Origin: Deltaproteobacteria bacterium
Lineage (GTDB): Bacteria; SAR324; JACQKK01
Direction: 5' to 3'
Assembly: GCA_029858505.1 (NCBI GenBank)
Contig: JAOUEW010000003.1
Coordinates: forward strand, 186,001-250,000
Length of the DNA: 64,000 bases
Part shown: positions 1-8,861 of the stretch, in pieces
Layout of the letters: every line of letters starts with the position of its first letter
Numbering within the stretch: the first letter of the stretch is position 1
The notes under the pieces: model-generated
Told to the model about the DNA's origin: nothing
Seen by the model: only the letters and a program-made list of their open reading frames with translations
Databases searched by the model: none
Made by a program: the position numbers and the translations under genes

Positions 1-1746
1 ACCAAGCGCCCCCCGGCTTTGGCTGGACCCGGCCCCCTGCCTGGGAGAGTTTCCCTCAAAAACCCGGGGCTCAAGGGAGCGGTACAACCAGCCATCGCCC
101 CCACCCCCCCCAGCCCAGCGCCAGCGGGCATCCCTGGAGGCATGGCCCCCCAGGGTGGAGAAGCCCTTCCCTTGCCCCCGCTGGCGGCCAAACGCCAATC
201 CGCCCCGGCAGCAGCTCAACCAACGGTTGCTCAACCCGCCGTATCTCAACCCGTTGTTGCTCAATCAGCCGCGAATCAGCCCGCCGTTGCCCCCAGACCA
301 ACCCCTGCCGCCACGCCAGCCCCGGTGACCCCCAACGCAGCCCCCAAGCCGGCACCCCAGGCAGCCCCCGTGCCATTGGCGCCCAACCCGCAGACCCCCG
401 CGATGGTGCCCCCGGCACAACCTGCCGGTTCGGCGGAAAGCGCCAGGGAAAAAGGCCCCTCCCTCAAACCCCTGGCGGCCGATCTCATCCGTGAGGCTCT
501 CAACAACCGCGGTGAAACGGCCCCCAGCGATACCACGGGAACCCCCGGCGGTCTGATTCGGAAAGACATCCGGGTAGACCTGGAAAAACTGGACGTGTTG
601 ATTGACCTGGTGGGGGAATTGATCATCGCGGAAAGTATGGTGACCCAAAACCCCGACTTGTTTGGGTATGAGTTTGAACGGTTTGAAAAAGCCGCTGGCC
701 ACTTGGCCAAAATCACCCGGGAGATTCAAGACATCGCCATGTCGCTGCGCATGGTGCCCCTGTCTACCGTCTTCCGTAAGATGATCCGGCTGGTGCATGA
801 CCTCTCCCAAAAAAGCGGAAAAGAAGTTGATTTGACCCTGAAGGGAGAAGACACCGAGGTGGACAAAACCGTGATCGAGTTGATTTCGGATCCCTTGGTT
901 CACATGATTCGAAATGCCGTGGACCATGGCGTGGAACCCATGGAAGAACGCTTGGCCGCGGGGAAGCCCCCCAAAGGAAACGTCACCATCGAAGCCCGGC
1001 ACGAAGGCGGAGAGGTGTGGGTCATTGTGCGGGATGACGGGCGGGGCATGAACAAAGAGCGGATTTTGGCCAAGGGCATTGAGCGGGGCCTGGTGAGGGG
1101 CGATGGCAGCGACATGAAAGACGACGAAATCTACCGCTTGGTGTTTGAACCAGGTTTTTCCACCGCCGACCAAGTGACCGATGTCTCTGGCCGAGGCGTG
1201 GGCATGGACGTGGTGAAACGAAACCTGGAGCGCATTAAGGGGAGAATCGACATTCAAACCCTTCCAGGGCAGGGCACAAGGTTTGTTCTGCGTATTCCCC
1301 TTACGCTGGCCATCATCGAGGGCATGTTGATCCGGGTGGGCGAACGCCGCTACATTATCCCCATGACCGCCATTCGCGAGTCCATTCAGGTCAAACCAGA
1401 GGACATCACCCGCACCATGGACGGCCAAGAGATCGTCATGCTGCGGGAAAACCTGTATCCCGTGGTGCGGCTGCATGAAATTCACAAAATCACCCCTATT
1501 CACACCAACTTGGAAGACGGGCTGCTGATGGTAATGGAGCACCAGGGGAGCTTGTTCTGCCTGTTTGTGGATGAACTGATTGGGCAGCTGCAAACGGTAA
1601 TTAAAGGATTGAGCGGAGTACTCGGAATGGTGCGGGGCGTGTCTGGGTGCGCTATCTTGGGAGACGGAGGGGTCAGCTTGATTTTAGACGTAGGCTCACT
1701 GGTTGACCTGGCTAGTTTGAAGGTAGACGAAAGTCAATTGGCTTGA
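1..1746 (+). CDS. cheA: Chemotaxis histidine kinase CheA, 5'-truncated by window edge
   Basis: CheA autophosphorylates and passes phosphate to CheY and CheB in response to chemoreceptors. The frame is open from base 1, so the N-terminal HPt (P1) domain lies outside the window. What remains starts with a long Pro/Ala/Gln-rich linker (about bases 1-540, with repeated VAQPAV-like units). Then come the P3 dimerisation helices (LVGELIIAES, near base 610), the ATPase domain with N-box MIRNAVDHG (near 905), G1 box DDGRGM (near 1033) and G2-type GRGVGMDVV (near 1192), and a C-terminal CheW-like domain from about 1290. No separate receiver domain is seen before the stop. The cheW gene follows after 19 bp, so this is the first gene visible of a chemotaxis operon. 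The length of the missing part is unknown. Confidence 0.96.
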   Translation, partial: TKRPPALAGPGPLPGRVSLKNPGLKGAVQPAIAPTPPSPAPAGIPGGMAPQGGEALPLPPLAAKRQSAPAAAQPTVAQPAVSQPVVAQSAANQPAVAPRPTPAATPAPVTPNAAPKPAPQAAPVPLAPNPQTPAMVPPAQPAGSAESAREKGPSLKPLAADLIREALNNRGETAPSDTTGTPGGLIRKDIRVDLEKLDVLIDLVGELIIAESMVTQNPDLFGYEFERFEKAAGHLAKITREIQDIAMSLRMVPLSTVFRKMIRLVHDLSQKSGKEVDLTLKGEDTEVDKTVIELISDPLVHMIRNAVDHGVEPMEERLAAGKPPKGNVTIEARHEGGEVWVIVRDDGRGMNKERILAKGIERGLVRGDGSDMKDDEIYRLVFEPGFSTADQVTDVSGRGVGMDVVKRNLERIKGRIDIQTLPGQGTRFVLRIPLTLAIIEGMLIRVGERRYIIPMTAIRESIQVKPEDITRTMDGQEIVMLRENLYPVVRLHEIHKITPIHTNLEDGLLMVMEHQGSLFCLFVDELIGQLQTVIKGLSGVLGMVRGVSGCAILGDGGVSLILDVGSLVDLASLKVDESQLA

Positions 1747-1765: not shown

Positions 1766-2287
1766 ATGGCCGACGTGTTTCAGGGAGAGTTTTACGATGA
1801 AGATGATTTTGACGAGGATATACTTCGGGATAAATACCTGACGTTTTTGTTGGGAGACGAAGTGTATGCCATTGACATTAAGTTCGTATCCGAGATTATT
1901 CGGCTGCAGAAGGTGATCCATGTGCCCGACATGCCCCCCTATATTCCCGGGGTGGTCGATATCCGCGGGCGGGTGATTCCCGTGATGGACGTGCGCATGC
2001 GGGTCAACATGGAAGTTCGGGAATACGATGAGCGTACCTGCGTCATCGTCATTCAGGTGGAGCAACAAACCGCCCTGGGCTTGATTGTGGACCGCGTGAT
2101 GGAGGTGGCCATGATTCCCACCGAATCTATCGAAACCCGTCCGCTCATCAACATGAAGGGCCGCGACCTGTTTATCGTGGGAATGGGAAAAATAGAGGGA
2201 GAAGTTCGGATTATTTTGGACGTGAACAAACTGTTGCGCGGCCAGGAGCTGCAATCCATTCACAAAGTCCTGGAAAATTTATCCTAG
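1766..2287 (+). CDS. cheW: Chemotaxis adaptor CheW (copy 1)
   Basis: CheW is the SH3-like adaptor that links CheA to chemoreceptors. The 173-aa product has an acidic N-terminal tail of about 25 residues, followed by a complete CheW domain: KYLTFLLGDEVYAIDI, the VHVPDMP-like turn, GVVDIRGRVIPVMD and LGLIVDRVMEV are all recognisable. An AAGGAG-like ribosome site sits 8 bases before the ATG. It lies between cheA and an MCP gene, and a second cheW follows the MCP, so two distinct adaptors may serve the same array. The acidic N-terminal tail is not usual for short CheW proteins. Confidence 0.95.
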   Translation: MADVFQGEFYDEDDFDEDILRDKYLTFLLGDEVYAIDIKFVSEIIRLQKVIHVPDMPPYIPGVVDIRGRVIPVMDVRMRVNMEVREYDERTCVIVIQVEQQTALGLIVDRVMEVAMIPTESIETRPLINMKGRDLFIVGMGKIEGEVRIILDVNKLLRGQELQSIHKVLENLS

Positions 2288-2373: not shown

Positions 2374-4170
2374 ATGGTGAAAATCGGAACCGACAAGAGT
2401 CTACAAACTCTGACAAGCTTGCTTCCCCGGGGCTCTTGGGGGGTGCAAAACAAACTGATGATCGTCATCATCCTGATCACCCTAACCAACCTGGCGGTGG
2501 TGGGGGTGACTTACCGCACCCTGCAATCCATGCGAGAGGACGCCAACATTCTGAACCGCGCGGGCCAACAGCGGGTGCTCATTCAACAAATGACCAAAGA
2601 ATCCATGGAAATTGGCAAAAGCAAAGACCAAGAATTCGTGGATTTTAAGCGGGAACTGATGGAGTTGAACCACGACCTGTTCGACAAAACCATCACGGGG
2701 ATGCTGGAAGGAAGCCCGCTGATAGGCCTGGAGGCCGTGACGGATCAGGAGTTGAGAGAACAGTTGTACGTGGTGCAAAATATGTGGAGAAATTTCAGTC
2801 CAAAAATCCGCGACATCATTCACAGCCCGGTGGGCACTCCTAAATTCGTCGAAGCCGAAGAGTACCTGGCTGAACACAACATGGAACTGCTGGAGGAAAT
2901 GAACGTGTTCGCGTTCAGTTTCCAAGAAACATCCGACAAAAAAATGACCAACCTCATCCGGGCCCTGGTGCTGGGGCTGGGGGTATCGCTGGTCATCACC
3001 CTGTTCGGGTGGTTCCTCATTTTCCGCATGATTATCCGCCCGGTGATTAACATCGTGGGCATGATTCACGAAATGGAGGCGGGGAACCTGGATCACCGCA
3101 TACGGATGACCCGAGGAGACGAGTTCGGCGAGTTGGGGCGTTCTCTGGACCGCTTCGCCGACAACCTGAAGCACGAAGTGGTGGTGGCCTTTGAAAAATT
3201 GGCCCAGGGAGACCTGACCTTTGAGGCCAAAGGCGTGATTCGAGACGGGTTGGATAAAACCAACATCAGCCTAACCGAACTGCTGCAACAGTTGCGCACC
3301 ACGGGGGATGAAATCGCCAGCGGCGCCACCCAGGTGGCCAACGCCAGCCAAACCCTTTCTCACGGCGCCACCGAGCAAGCGGCCTCGCTGGAAGAAATCA
3401 ACGCCAGCATTGAAGAGATGGCCAGCCAAACCAAACGCTCCGCCGAAAGCGCGTCGGAAGCCAACCGCCTGGCCAACTTGGCCCGGTCTGAAGCTGAAAA
3501 TGGTAACCGACGGATGCAAGACATGAACAAAGCCATGGATGAAATCATCCAAAGCTCCGCCGCCATTTCTAAAATCATCAAAGTGATCGACGAGATCGCC
3601 TTTCAAACGAACCTGCTGGCGTTGAACGCCGCGGTAGAAGCCGGGCGGGCGGGTCGCCACGGAAAGGGTTTTGCCGTGGTGGCGGGCGAGGTGCGAAACC
3701 TGGCCGCGCGCTCCGCCAGGGCCGCCAAAGAAACCAGCCAGCTCATTGCCGGGTCGGTGAAAAAAGTGAAAAACGGCGCGGAAATCGCGGAAGATACGTC
3801 GAAAACCCTCTCGGCCATTGTGGGAAGCATTCAGCAGGCCAGCAAGCTGGTGGCCGAAATCGCCCGCTCGGCCAGCGAACAGGCCGAAGGAATTCACCAA
3901 GTGTCCAACGCCCTGGAATCCATCGAGCGGGTGACCCAGCAAAACACCGCCTCGGCCGAACAAAGCGCCTCGGCCGCCCAAGAGCAAGCCCAGCAGGCCG
4001 ATCAAATGCGTAACATGTTGGCCCGGTTCCGCCTGAAGACGGGCATTCAATCCAGAATGGACAAGCCCAAAAAACGCAGAATGGAAGATGAGGACATGGA
4101 TTTCGGGGGTAAACCCGTGATGCTCCCCCACGATACCGATTCCACCCTTGCAGATTTTGGTAAATATTGA
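2374..4170 (+). CDS. Methyl-accepting chemotaxis protein with PilJ-type sensor
   Basis: A 598-aa transmembrane chemoreceptor. The order is: TM1 at about residues 28-47; a periplasmic region that opens with [15 protein letters not shown], the hallmark of the PilJ/type IV pili MCP sensor family; TM2 at about 196-219; a HAMP domain; and a long cytoplasmic coiled coil with the signalling tip [18 protein letters not shown] near residue 406. There is no C-terminal CheR-tethering pentapeptide; the tail is basic then acidic. The ribosome site AAGGAG is 8 bases before the ATG. It sits between two cheW genes, so it is probably the dedicated receptor of this cluster. The ligand cannot be read from sequence. 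Confidence 0.95.
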
Positions 4171-4191: not shown

Positions 4192-4674
4192 ATGGAAAAA
4201 AGTGAAATCCGACTCATGTCTGGCATGGTGGCCCCGGATGCCGAGGAGACCCTCCGTGAAAAATACCTGACTTTCCTGTTGGGGGAGGATGAATACTGCA
4301 TGGAGGTTCGCCACGTGCTGGAAATCATCGGGATGCAGAACATCACCCCCATTCCGGATGTTCCGGAATACATCATGGGGGTCATCAACTTACGGGGAAA
4401 GGTGGTTCCCCTGCTGGATATGCGCACCCGCATGGGAATGGAAAAGAAGGCCTTCGATGCCCGGACCTGCATCATCGTGGTCTTGCACAGCACCGGAAAC
4501 ACCGGGTTGGTCGTGGACCGGGTGAAAATGGTGGTCAATATTTCCCGCGATTCTCTTGAAATATATAAGCAATCAGGAACCGTCCTCAGTCATCGCTTCA
4601 TTCGGGGAATGGCCCGCCTGGATGATGGCGTGAAAGTATTGATGAACTTGGACAGCATTCTGGGGCGAGATTAA
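4192..4674 (+). CDS. cheW: Chemotaxis adaptor CheW (copy 2)
   Basis: A second CheW adaptor of 160 aa, clearly related to the first copy (KYLTFLLGEDEYCMEV, IPDVPEYIMGVINLRGKVVPLLDM, GLVVDRVKMVV). It starts 21 bases after the MCP stop, so it is almost certainly co-transcribed. The two paralogues differ in their N-terminal tails and surface residues, which suggests they fill separate positions in the array, though that is inference. A 152-base gap follows, containing a 6-bp hairpin (ACCGCC/GGCGGT near 4779-4796) without a T-tract. Confidence 0.95.
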   Translation: MEKSEIRLMSGMVAPDAEETLREKYLTFLLGEDEYCMEVRHVLEIIGMQNITPIPDVPEYIMGVINLRGKVVPLLDMRTRMGMEKKAFDARTCIIVVLHSTGNTGLVVDRVKMVVNISRDSLEIYKQSGTVLSHRFIRGMARLDDGVKVLMNLDSILGRD

Positions 4675-4826: not shown

Positions 4827-5333
4827 ATGGACGAAGCTCCAGTCAAAGATTTTTTCTTAAAACCCGGCCATGTGTTTTTACCCGTGGAGCCGACCCTGAT
4901 TTCCACCGTGGTGAGTTCCGGGATCGCCGTGACCCTTTATGACTTCCGCAAAGGCATGGGCGGAATGGCCTCTTATCTGGAGCCCGTGCGCCCCCAGCAT
5001 GTGCTATCCACCCCGGTATATGCCTGCCCCGCCATCATTGGCTTGATTCAGATGTTCCGCAAAATCGGTTCACGCATGGAACATTTAGAGGCTCAATTGT
5101 TCGGGGGCTCGGAAAACGAGTTGATGAGCGGGTTCGTGGCCGGTCTGGGAGAAAAAAACATCGAGGCCGCCCTGGAAATTTTAGATCGGGAGGGCATTCG
5201 GGTCGCGGGTCAGGATGTGGGGGGATACCGGGGCCGCAAAGTGGTCTTTCAATCCGCCACTGGGGAAGCCTTGGCGGCCCGGGTCAATGCCATCCGGAAA
5301 AAAGATTGGTATCCCTCTCGTCAGGCGATATAA
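4827..5333 (+). CDS. CheD-like protein lacking catalytic Cys and His
   Basis: A 168-aa protein that aligns along its length with the CheD receptor glutamine deamidase: the strand-turn VTLYDFRKGMGGMA, the LFGGSENE loop (GGA.. in CheD), the N-rich AGLGEKNIEAAL segment (NIG.RN) and DVGG.RGR all match in order. In active CheD the GSCV loop supplies the nucleophilic Cys and the following AHxxLP supplies His. Here these are SSGI and ASYLEP, so both residues are lost. It is probably a non-enzymatic CheD fold, perhaps a CheC/CheX- or receptor-binding regulator (inference). No good ribosome site is visible before the ATG. An intact cheD lies 2 kb downstream in the same cluster. Confidence 0.8.
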   Translation: MDEAPVKDFFLKPGHVFLPVEPTLISTVVSSGIAVTLYDFRKGMGGMASYLEPVRPQHVLSTPVYACPAIIGLIQMFRKIGSRMEHLEAQLFGGSENELMSGFVAGLGEKNIEAALEILDREGIRVAGQDVGGYRGRKVVFQSATGEALAARVNAIRKKDWYPSRQAI

Positions 5334-5380: not shown

Positions 5381-6232
5381 ATGGAAGAAACCTCCATTTT
5401 TTCGCTGATCCAAATTTCGGACGCGGAGTTTTTTACCATTCGCGACATGGTGTTTCAGCAGGCTGGCATCCATCTGACGATCAAGAAAAAGCCCCTGGTG
5501 GTGGGCCGGCTGCACATGCTGCTGCGAGAAAAAGAATTCAACAATTACAACGAATATATTCAGTATGTTCAATCCGATCAAACCGGGAAGGCCCTGGAGG
5601 AACTGGTGGATAAAATTTCCACCAATCACACCTACTTTTTCCGGGAAGAGGCCCATTTCAATTTTTTTCTAGAAACGGCTCTGCCCAACGTCATCGCCCA
5701 GATTGCCAAACGGGGAGAAAAAGACCTGCGGATATGGTCGGCGGGTTGTGCCACGGGAGAAGAGGCCTATATGCTGGTGATGTTGATGAAAGAAGCCCTG
5801 GGCGAGCGTTACAAGGATTGGGATGCGGGGGTACTGGCCACCGATATCTCGAACAATGCCCTGGCGGTGGCCAAGCAGGCGGTGTATCCCCTCGACAAAG
5901 CCCACCAGCTGCCCCCCCATTTGCGGAAAAAATACACCCTGACCACCCAGGAGGATCAGATTGAAATTCATCCAGATATCCGTAAAGAGGTGACCTTTCG
6001 CCGGTTCAACTTGATGAGTGAAACCTTCCCCTTTAAAAAGCCTTTTCATATTATTTTCTGCCGAAACGTGATGATCTATTTCGAGGAAGCGACGCGCCAA
6101 CAGTTGATTCAAAAGTTTCGGGGGCAGTTGGTTCCCCAGGGATACCTGTTTATCGGCCATGCCGAAACCCTGAGAGCCATTGACGAAGGTTTTCACTACC
6201 TCCGCCCGGCGGTGTATCAAAAGGAGTTTTAA
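5381..6232 (+). CDS. cheR: Chemotaxis protein methyltransferase CheR
   Basis: CheR methylates receptor glutamates using S-adenosylmethionine. The 283-aa product has the N-terminal helical CheR_N domain (about residues 10-70) and the Rossmann methyltransferase domain. The SAM-binding motif is IWSAGCATGEEAYM (near residue 120), followed by ILATDIS-type VLATDIS and the FCRNVMIYF motif (near residue 227). Length matches the family. The cheB gene begins one base after its stop, with cheB's ribosome site AAGGAG lying inside the last cheR codons, which indicates translational coupling. Confidence 0.97.
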   Translation: MEETSIFSLIQISDAEFFTIRDMVFQQAGIHLTIKKKPLVVGRLHMLLREKEFNNYNEYIQYVQSDQTGKALEELVDKISTNHTYFFREEAHFNFFLETALPNVIAQIAKRGEKDLRIWSAGCATGEEAYMLVMLMKEALGERYKDWDAGVLATDISNNALAVAKQAVYPLDKAHQLPPHLRKKYTLTTQEDQIEIHPDIRKEVTFRRFNLMSETFPFKKPFHIIFCRNVMIYFEEATRQQLIQKFRGQLVPQGYLFIGHAETLRAIDEGFHYLRPAVYQKEF

Positions 6233-6233
6233 G

Positions 6234-7286
6234 ATGTCTCAGGCCATCCAAGTGCTGTTGGTCGATGATTCTCCCCTGGTGTTAGACCTGCTGCAGCGGG
6301 GGTTGGCCTTGGATTCTTCCATCCAGGTGGTGGGCACCGCCAAAAGCGGCCAGGAAGCCCTGATGAAGGTGAATACCCTTTCCCCCCAGGTCATGACCCT
6401 GGATGTGGAAATGCCCGGCATGAATGGGGTTGATGTTTTGCGACATATAATGCCGGTCAAACCCCTGCCTGTCGTGATGGTCAGTGCCTTGACGAAAAGG
6501 GGGCAACAGATTACGCTGGATGCCTTGGAGGCCGGGGCGGTGGATTTTGTCACCAAGCCATCCGCTGAAGAAGGAGTCGGATTTGATGACATGATTTTGG
6601 AGCTTCGCACCAAAATCAAAATCGCGCGCATGGCCAAGGTGGCCCACTGGAAAGGGAAAAACCCCCCTCCCACCGCCAGCGGCCCAGACCTCCACCTTCA
6701 GCAAACCCCCGAATGGATCGTGGCCATAGGTGCCTCCACCGGAGGAACCGATGCGGTACGGGAAATCCTGACCCGGCTCCCCAGCGCCATTCCGCCTGTG
6801 GTGATTACACAGCACATGCCCGCGCGTTTCACCGCCATGTTCGCCAACCGGCTGAACGAAATTTGCCGGATTCGGGTGAAGGAGGCGGAAGACGGAGAAG
6901 CATTGCAGGCCGGAACGGCCTATTTGGCCCCCGGAGGATTCCAGTTTTCCATTCACCGGGTTCAGGGGCGGCTGATCGCCCGGGTGTACGCCGGGCCAAA
7001 GGTCAACGGTCATTGCCCCTCGGTGGATGTGTTGATGCATTCGGTGGCTGAAACCATGGGGAACCACGCCGTGGGCGTAATGCTGACGGGCATGGGCGGA
7101 GACGGAGCGGAAGGCATGCTGAACATGAAACAGCAGGGGGCCGTGAACATTGCCCAAAACGAAGAAACTTGCGTGATCTTTGGAATGCCCAAGGTGGCTT
7201 GGGAAAAAGGCGCGGTAGAGGAACTCGTTCCCCTTCCCCGCATGGCCGAAACCATCGTGGGAATCTTGGAGAAACAGGGGTTATGA
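6234..7286 (+). CDS. cheB: Protein-glutamate methylesterase/deamidase CheB
   Basis: CheB demethylates and deamidates receptors when phosphorylated by CheA. The 350-aa product carries a receiver domain (acidic pair in LLVDDSP, phospho-acceptor Asp in MTLDVEMPG, Lys in VTKPS), a Pro-rich linker, and the methylesterase domain. That domain shows the catalytic Ser in GASTGGTDA, His in TQHMP and Asp in LTGMGGDGAEGM. The ATG at 6234 is chosen over an upstream in-frame start at 6180 because it follows the AAGGAG site and begins directly with the receiver strand. Its stop overlaps the cheD start (ATGA). Confidence 0.97.
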   Translation: MSQAIQVLLVDDSPLVLDLLQRGLALDSSIQVVGTAKSGQEALMKVNTLSPQVMTLDVEMPGMNGVDVLRHIMPVKPLPVVMVSALTKRGQQITLDALEAGAVDFVTKPSAEEGVGFDDMILELRTKIKIARMAKVAHWKGKNPPPTASGPDLHLQQTPEWIVAIGASTGGTDAVREILTRLPSAIPPVVITQHMPARFTAMFANRLNEICRIRVKEAEDGEALQAGTAYLAPGGFQFSIHRVQGRLIARVYAGPKVNGHCPSVDVLMHSVAETMGNHAVGVMLTGMGGDGAEGMLNMKQQGAVNIAQNEETCVIFGMPKVAWEKGAVEELVPLPRMAETIVGILEKQGL

Positions 7287-7771
7287 GCCAGCAGATCCTG
7301 GGGGTGGGAGAAATGGGCGTCGTTCAGGGGGATGGAAAAACCCTGAAAATCTACGCGCTGGGTTCTTGCGTGGCCACCGTGTTGTGGGAGCGGGAATCGA
7401 AAACCCTGGCGGTTTCCCATGTGGCCCTGCCCGAATCGGCCAATAACCCGGAAAAAGCCCGGGAGATGCCTGGCTATTTCGCCGATACGGCCGTGGTGGA
7501 AATGATCAACCGCATGAAAGGGTTGGGCGCGAAATTGGAACGGGGCGGGGTGGTGGTGAAACTGGTGGGAGGGGCCCAAATGATGGACCAAGAAGGCACC
7601 TTTAATATCGGCAAACGTAACGTGCTCACCTTAAAAAAAGTGCTGTGGGCCAAAGGAATGGCCCCCTTGGCCGAGGAGGTCGGCAGCGACATCAGCCGAA
7701 CGGTCACCATCTACTCTGGCTCTGGCAAGGTAGAAATTGCCACGGCGGGTCTGGAAAGCCGGGTGTTGTAA
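7283..7771 (+). CDS. cheD: Chemoreceptor glutamine deamidase CheD
   Basis: CheD deamidates receptor glutamines and is bound by CheC-family phosphatases. This 162-aa copy is intact: YALGSCVATVLW holds the catalytic Cys, VSHVALP the catalytic His, and KLVGGAQMM plus FNIGKRNV follow as in the family. The start chosen is the ATG at 7283, overlapping the cheB stop by four bases (ATGA), rather than the in-frame upstream start at 7169, which would run through cheB. It is the active counterpart of the degenerate CheD-like gene at 4827. Confidence 0.95.
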   Translation: MSQQILGVGEMGVVQGDGKTLKIYALGSCVATVLWERESKTLAVSHVALPESANNPEKAREMPGYFADTAVVEMINRMKGLGAKLERGGVVVKLVGGAQMMDQEGTFNIGKRNVLTLKKVLWAKGMAPLAEEVGSDISRTVTIYSGSGKVEIATAGLESRVL

Positions 7772-7973: not shown

Positions 7974-8333
7974 ATGAAAACCATCCTGATTGTTGACGAC
8001 TCCAGTTCCGCCCGGCTGTTTATCCAGCGCTGTTTCGAGGTCTCCGGCTTCAATGGCAGCCAATTCCTGGAAGCGGAAAACGGGCAAAAAGCCATCGAAG
8101 TCTTGGGCGGAAAGCCGGTGGATCTGCTGGTCACCGACCTGACCATGCCCGAAGTAGACGGCCTGGGCCTGCTGCAATGGGCCAAAAAGAACAAGCCTCA
8201 ACTTCCCGTGCTGGTCATCACCAGTTCCGGGAACGAAGCACGCAAAGCCGAACTGATGAGTGCTGGGGCAAAAAGCGTTCTGATCAAGCCCATCTCTCCG
8301 GCGGTGATACAAGAAACCATGAAATCTCTCTAA
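7974..8333 (+). CDS. cheY: CheY-like single-domain response regulator
   Basis: A 119-aa stand-alone receiver domain. It has the acidic pair in LIVDDSS, the phospho-acceptor Asp in LLVTDLTMPEVDG (about residue 54), a switch Ser/Thr in VLVITSSG and the Lys in LIKPIS. There is no output domain, which fits a CheY that binds the flagellar motor or acts as a phosphate sink. It lies 202 bases after cheD and 30 bases before a CheX-type phosphatase gene, a natural enzyme/substrate pair. A weak GGAG site precedes the ATG. Whether it is the true motor-binding CheY of this cell cannot be shown from this window. Confidence 0.9.
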   Translation: MKTILIVDDSSSARLFIQRCFEVSGFNGSQFLEAENGQKAIEVLGGKPVDLLVTDLTMPEVDGLGLLQWAKKNKPQLPVLVITSSGNEARKAELMSAGAKSVLIKPISPAVIQETMKSL

Positions 8334-8363: not shown

Positions 8364-8861
8364 ATGGCCTATTTTGAAAGCGACCGGTGCAGCGTTACCG
8401 CCCAACTCCACGACATGGTCATCGAGTCGGTGGTAGAGGCGTTCGAGCCCATGGGATTTTTAGAAGTGCTGCCCGCTGAAGCCTTCGTTCCATACGACGA
8501 ACGAATGAACCGGGTTCGCGTTGAAATTATGGTAGAGACCCCCTTCCAGGGGGAAATGCGGCTGATTATCCCCAAAGAAGTGGGCATGGAAATCACCACG
8601 AATTTATACAGTTACGACCGGGGGCAGGTCACCGAAAACATGCTGAACGACATGCTGCGGGAAATACTGAACGTCATCGCCGGAAGGCTGGTGGCCAGAA
8701 TCGTGCCCCCAGAAATTCCGTTTACCATCGGCCTGCCCGAAGTGGGGAAAAAATCCTTCGACGATAAAAACACTCCCTCCTCCACCTTTCACTTCCACCT
8801 GGAACAAAACCCCTTTTGGGTGGTGTTGCTGGGGGAAGGTTTTTTCAGCGCATCCAAATAG
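8364..8861 (+). CDS. cheX: CheX/CheC-type chemotaxis phosphatase
   Basis: A 165-aa protein with one copy of the CheC/CheX signature: the stretch DMLREILNVIAG fits D-x3-E-x2-N-x3-G, in which the Glu and Asn are the dephosphorylation residues of this family. A CheX-like alpha/beta fold is plausible around it. The product is expected to remove phosphate from the CheY-type regulator encoded 30 bases upstream; no cheZ is seen in the window. The last 15 residues (PFWVVLLGEGFFS) are hydrophobic. Only one catalytic motif is present, as in CheX and unlike two-site CheC. Confidence 0.82.
   Translation: MAYFESDRCSVTAQLHDMVIESVVEAFEPMGFLEVLPAEAFVPYDERMNRVRVEIMVETPFQGEMRLIIPKEVGMEITTNLYSYDRGQVTENMLNDMLREILNVIAGRLVARIVPPEIPFTIGLPEVGKKSFDDKNTPSSTFHFHLEQNPFWVVLLGEGFFSASK

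What the first reader, a model, noticed from the sequence alone, without database searches (positions are those of the whole stretch)
4827..5333. CheD pseudoenzyme beside an intact cheD in one chemotaxis cluster
Direct reading: the protein aligns along the CheD fold, but the GSC nucleophile loop reads SSG and the catalytic His loop (AHxxLP) reads ASYLEP, so both catalytic residues are gone. An intact CheD with GSC and SHVALP is encoded 2 kb downstream in the same cluster (7283-7771). Established: CheD deamidates receptors and binds CheC-family proteins. Inference: the degenerate copy may be a non-catalytic regulator, such as a decoy that binds receptors or CheX without deamidating them.
Basis: partly seen in the sequence, partly recalled or inferred. 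Interest (0 to 1): 0.7.

Follow-up and report, generated by a model that had tools for sequence, protein, structure and literature searches.

The report
Dead-enzyme copy of chemotaxis protein CheD
A bacterium of the SAR324 group keeps, inside its chemotaxis gene cluster, a copy of the receptor-modifying enzyme CheD that has lost its catalytic residues but is conserved in distant relatives, which suggests that CheD can work by binding receptors rather than by chemically changing them.

Summary
ORF 4827-5333 is a true CheD homologue: Pfam CheD 64.9 bits; AlphaFold model pLDDT 86 whose best PDB match is T. maritima CheD, 2F9Z chain C. The catalytic Cys is Gly32 (codon GGG) and the catalytic His is Ser49 (codon TCT), each at least two base changes away, so not a single read error. 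A Cys/His-retaining cheD lies 2 kb downstream; these are the only two CheDs in the genome.

It is not a private oddity. Six proteins from different genera form one fully supported clade without the Cys (Gly x5, Ala x1). They sit within a larger CheD paralogue clade with an Arg-x-x-Asp-Trp/Tyr-Tyr-Pro tail. There 19 of 49 sampled rows lack the Cys (Gly, Ala or Ser); all rows outside keep it. A single loss is rejected (AU p = 0.0016; about 8 changes). All 19 genomes also encode a Cys-retaining CheD, usually in the same cluster.

Best explanation: a non-catalytic, receptor-binding adaptation protein. In B. subtilis, CheD's binding matters more than its deamidase activity. A CheC decoy is unsupported: the genome has no CheC and the CheC-contact Met-Phe is absent. 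CheX binding is untested. The "intact" CheD is itself divergent. Function is inferred, not shown.

The parts
4827..5333 (+). cheD* : Cys-less, His-less CheD paralogue (168 aa), 'tailed' CheD clade
4920..4922 (+). codon GGG, Gly32, at the position of catalytic Cys27 of T. maritima CheD
4971..4973 (+). codon TCT, Ser49, at the position of catalytic His44 of T. maritima CheD
4986..5036 (+). residues 54-70, loop and start of helix 1; R55, S61, T62, A66, P68 invariant in the six-member Cys-less clade (the Asp/Asn common in other CheDs is Cys/Ala at 67)
5295..5315 (+). C-terminal tail R157-x-x-D-W-Y-P163, signature of the tailed CheD clade
7283..7771 (+). cheD, Cys- and His-retaining copy (Ile at the Thr21 position, divergent)
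1..1746 (+). cheA, 3' part; the gene starts about 1.2 kb upstream of the window
1766..2287 (+). cheW
2374..4170 (+). mcp (PilJ-type N-terminal domain, HAMP, MCPsignal); has Gln in methylation-site-like motifs ([16 protein letters not shown])
4192..4674 (+). second cheW
5381..6232 (+). cheR
6234..7286 (+). cheB (receiver + methylesterase)
7974..8333 (+). single-domain response regulator (CheY-like, by its translation)
8364..8861 (+). cheX
   Evidence: PF13690, 34.8 bits

Best explanation
The gene encodes a conserved pseudoenzyme of the CheD family. It keeps the CheD fold and, by inference, the face that grips the methylation helices of chemoreceptors, but it should not deamidate because nucleophile and general base are gone. 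It most likely works as a stoichiometric receptor-binding adaptation protein: by docking on the receptor helices it tunes CheA activation and/or shields glutamine/glutamate sites from CheB, CheR and the catalytic CheD made from the same cluster. Shown here: homology, loss of both residues, predicted fold, conservation of the Cys-less state, repeated loss within one paralogue clade, co-occurrence with a Cys-retaining CheD. Inferred: lack of activity, receptor binding, the direction of the effect on CheA, and the division of labour with the second CheD.
For: CheD fold: AF2 pLDDT 86.2, top PDB hit CheD 2F9Z_C (E 5.5e-12, TM 0.76/0.83). Six-member Cys-less clade with 100/100 support and end branches of 0.5-0.9 changes per site, so old and retained, with about 38 invariant columns among five members. 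Same gene order mcp-cheD*-cheR-cheB-cheD in another genus (L066/L142) and cheA-cheW-mcp-cheW-cheD* in G003. All 19 Cys-less rows fall in the tailed clade, with several losses (AU p 0.0016 against one clade). All 19 genomes keep a Cys-containing CheD, 13 of them within the fetched stretch of the same locus. B. subtilis CheD-F102E deamidates normally but fails in taxis like a null mutant, so binding is the main job there (PMC3513319).
Against: No binding, expression or phenotype data. Receptor-contact residues could not be mapped because no receptor complex was modelled. In B. subtilis the binding role is coupled to CheC, which this genome lacks. The paralogue clade also contains many Cys-retaining members, so its shared function need not be non-catalytic.
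Confidence: 0.55

Rival explanations
1. The pseudoenzyme acts on the catalytic CheD rather than on receptors: it forms a mixed complex with it, or alters its turnover, so that the ratio of the two sets the deamidation rate.
For: All 19 Cys-less genomes carry a Cys-retaining CheD, most in the same cluster, two in tandem.
Against: Tailed CheDs that keep the Cys also co-occur with a second CheD (25 of 25 genomes), so the pairing is not specific to the Cys-less state. CheD is not known to need a CheD partner (own knowledge).
Confidence: 0.2
2. The protein is still an enzyme, with another chemistry or another nucleophile.
For: Ser replaces Cys in four tailed relatives (L123, L125, L130, L139) and many Cys-less members keep the His. 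The window protein has Cys67 at the start of helix 1.
Against: In the window clade the residue is Gly or Ala, which cannot act as a nucleophile. The His is lost as well in four of six. Cys67 is Ala in three of six.
Confidence: 0.1
3. The protein has been recruited to another partner through its tail (for example CheX, CheW or CheA) and no longer binds receptors.
For: The tail R-x-x-D-W/Y-Y-P is nearly invariant in the tailed clade and absent elsewhere. The gene lies beside mcp/cheW, cheA or cheX in several loci. The copy in G032 (L034) is outside a full che cluster.
Against: Many Cys-retaining members carry the same tail, which fits a shared receptor-directed role.
Confidence: 0.1
4. The gene is a decaying duplicate without function.
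For: Loss of catalytic residues is a usual step of decay. No clear ribosome-binding site by eye.
Against: Open frame and 44-53% identity kept across genera with the same lesion, plus clade-specific invariant residues.
Confidence: 0.05

Closest known systems
CheD receptor deamidase (Pfam PF03975; T. maritima CheD, PDB 2F9Z; B. subtilis CheD)
   Same: Fold, family profile, position in a che cluster next to mcp/cheR/cheB
   Different: Cys27 -> Gly, His44 -> Ser; extra C-terminal tail; no Met-Phe CheC-contact pair; genome has no CheC
B. subtilis CheC/CheD/CheYp adaptation system (PMC3513319)
   Same: Precedent that CheD's main role can be binding, with minor need for deamidation
   Different: There CheD is still an active enzyme and is controlled by CheC; here there is no CheC and the catalytic residues are lost
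Tailed Cys-retaining CheD paralogues found here (e.g. L080-L098, L120, L124, L132)
   Same: Same tail and same clade (99/96 support)
   Different: Keep Cys and His, so presumably active
Geobacter chemotaxis genes with two or three cheD per genome (PMC2577667)
   Same: More than one cheD per genome
   Different: That paper counts cheD genes but, in the passages read, does not comment on catalytic residues

Membership tests
CheD chemoreceptor glutamine deamidase | Homology over the CheD domain | tested here: met
   PF03975 64.9 bits; 2F9Z_C E 6e-12, profile E 1.4e-18
CheD chemoreceptor glutamine deamidase | CheD fold | tested here: met
   AF2 model pLDDT 86, best PDB match 2F9Z_C
CheD chemoreceptor glutamine deamidase | Catalytic Cys (Cys27 in T. 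maritima) | tested here: not met
   Gly32; Gly or Ala in all six clade members
CheD chemoreceptor glutamine deamidase | Catalytic His (His44) | tested here: not met
   Ser49; S, A, H, H, Y, Y across window, G003, G058, G032, G012, G160
CheD chemoreceptor glutamine deamidase | Deamidates or de-esterifies receptors | not testable with these tools
   Needs biochemistry
CheC-coupled CheD adaptation system | CheC in the genome | tested here: not met
   No PF04509 match in G000 (genome 97% complete)
CheC-coupled CheD adaptation system | Met-Phe pair at the CheC interface (M101/F102 of B. subtilis) | tested here: not met
   GGSENEL against GGASMFE of T. maritima (residues named)
Chemotaxis cluster gene | Encoded among che/mcp genes | tested here: met
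   cheA-cheW-mcp-cheW-cheD*-cheR-cheB-cheD-RR-cheX
Tailed CheD paralogue clade (defined here) | Groups with tailed CheDs and bears R-x-x-D-W/Y-Y-P | tested here: met
   99/96 support

The most novel reading that the evidence does not exclude
A recurrent class of CheD pseudoenzymes exists: one tailed CheD paralogue lineage in SAR324 and another phylum has repeatedly given up catalysis and serves as a dedicated, CheC-independent receptor-binding adaptation protein working beside a catalytic CheD.
Probability: 0.4. Interest if true: 0.65.

Novelty: new variant of a known kind. Interest (0 to 1): 0.5.

Why it matters
In B. subtilis it has been called a paradox that CheD is an enzyme whose enzymatic activity hardly matters for taxis (PMC3513319). 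A lineage in which evolution has removed the catalytic residues several times, while the gene stays in the che cluster beside a Cys-retaining copy, separates binding from catalysis and makes the question directly testable. It also warns that 'CheD' annotations (deamidase) are wrong for a set of genomes. I found no description of a Cys-less CheD in the open-access papers searched, a library that lacks most subscription journals.

Tried and rejected
Recent pseudogene or sequencing error: rejected by the two-base codon differences and by conservation. Replacement nucleophile Cys67: not conserved (3 of 6). CheC decoy: no CheC in the genome and no Met-Phe pair. Single origin of all Cys-less copies: rejected (AU p 0.0016). 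Link between Cys loss and presence of a second CheD: not specific, because Cys-retaining tailed copies have a second CheD too. The first genome-contig scan with the single protein found nothing; the profile scan found six loci. A search of the Dyella phylum failed for want of a handle. A class search around G160 held only two genomes and gave nothing new. No 16S was found in the assembly, so the SAR324 label rests on named relatives. Literature searches for an inactive or second CheD gave nothing relevant.

Full report
OBSERVATION. The ORF at 4827-5333 is a CheD homologue. The T. maritima alignment puts Gly32 at Cys27, Ser49 at His44 and Ser26 at Thr21 (the catalytic roles of Cys27/His44/Thr21 are from my own knowledge of the 2006 Cell paper on 2F9Z, which is cited in the papers read but not held here). 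Codons are GGG and TCT. The second copy at 7283-7771 keeps Cys and His. The genome has no third CheD.

FOLD. An AlphaFold model from an eight-row alignment (window plus loci from the search for related loci) has mean pLDDT 86.2 and pTM 0.83. Its top PDB match is CheD from the CheC-CheD complex, 2F9Z_C, E 5.5e-12, TM 0.76/0.83; next come NTAN1 and YfiH. A Cys/His pair elsewhere is unlikely: the only Cys, Cys67, is Ala in half of the clade, at a position where most other CheDs have Asp/Asn.

ORIGIN AND RELATIVES. Close relatives come from a Deltaproteobacteria MAG (L065, 53%), a SAR324 cluster bacterium (L067, 47%) and a 'Proteobacteria' MAG (L066, 50%), and from same-family and same-order genomes G003, G032 and G012; L065 and L067 are the same contigs as those of G003 and G032. 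A sixth, G160, was found in the phylum of L066. Residues at the Cys position are G, A, G, G, G, G and at the His position S, A, H, H, Y, Y for window, G003, G058 (L066), G032, G012, G160.

THE TAILED CLADE. A profile of the Cys-less proteins pulled in a wider set with the same C-terminal tail. In a tree of 106 rows, built without the Cys and His columns, 49 tailed rows group together (99/96) and hold all 19 Cys-less rows. The 57 other rows all keep the Cys. The window clade of six is 100/100. In a focused tree of 55 rows the fewest changes are 8 (bootstrap 7-8), and holding all Cys-less rows as one clade costs 48.6 log-likelihood units (p-AU 0.0016). Starred branches alone force fewer changes (3 in the large tree, 1 in the focused one), so the exact number of losses is uncertain. 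The sample was picked by similarity to a Cys-less profile, so 19 of 49 is not a prevalence.

NEIGHBOURHOOD. The window cluster is cheA-cheW-mcp-cheW-cheD*-cheR-cheB-cheD-RR-cheX; cheA starts about 1.2 kb upstream of the window. L142 (G058) shows mcp-cheD*-cheR-cheB-cheD-RR-...-cheX, and L033 (G003) cheA-cheW-mcp-cheW-cheD* up to the contig end. Of the 19 Cys-less copies, 13 have a Cys-retaining cheD in the fetched stretch. Four of the other six lie on short or cut contigs; G012 and G032 have none within about 9 kb, though both genomes have Cys-retaining copies elsewhere. Every one of the 19 genomes has at least one Cys-retaining CheD (in G003 only a contig-edge fragment was read). The same pairing holds for tailed copies that kept the Cys, so the tailed protein is in general the second CheD.

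MECHANISM. In B. subtilis, CheD binds receptors and raises their ability to activate CheA; CheC competes for CheD. CheD-F102E deamidates normally yet behaves like a cheD null in proline taxis, and the authors conclude that binding matters most (PMC3513319). A CheD without catalytic residues is thus plausible as a binding-only adaptation protein. The window genome has no CheC, and the Met-Phe pair that marks CheC-partnered CheDs is absent, so control must come from elsewhere, perhaps competition with the second CheD or the receptor's own modification state (inference). The clade-specific invariant residues R55, S61, T62, A66 and P68 lie in the loop after the former His strand and at the start of helix 1, which fits a remodelled binding face (inference). 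The cluster MCP has Gln in methylation-site-like motifs, so a deamidase is still useful, which the second CheD or CheB could supply. The genome encodes FliM, so the organism probably swims.

CAVEATS. The downstream 'intact' CheD has Ile at the Thr21 position, a GG to GS change and a long branch, so its activity is also unproven. No complex was modelled, and all functional statements about the Cys-less protein are inference.

Noticed in passing
7283-7771: The Cys-retaining CheD has Ile at the position of T. maritima Thr21, GG -> GS in the DxGG motif and a long end branch (1.46); it may itself have altered activity.
   Followed up: partly
L167 7476-8480; L169 4053-5085: Tandem cheD pairs in which the tailed copy has Cys -> Ala or Ser and its immediate neighbour keeps Cys.
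   Followed up: partly
L129 793-1998: A tailed, Cys-retaining CheD in an open frame of 402 aa, a possible fusion.
   Followed up: no
G000:C14:259233-259781 (L226), about 9 kb beyond the window end: A second, weak FliM-like match (37.5 bits) besides the clear FliM at C14:39768-40346.
   Followed up: no
genomes of group f2/g11: None of the sampled genomes of this genus in the same order has a CheD match, unlike the sampled genomes of family f3 of the class, which all have one or more.
   Followed up: no
L034 7195-10331: In the SAR324 genome G032 the Cys-less cheD lies directly upstream, on the same strand, of a large protein that looks von Willebrand-type (CbbO/NorD-like by eye) and diverges from an mcp, outside a full che cluster.
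   Followed up: no
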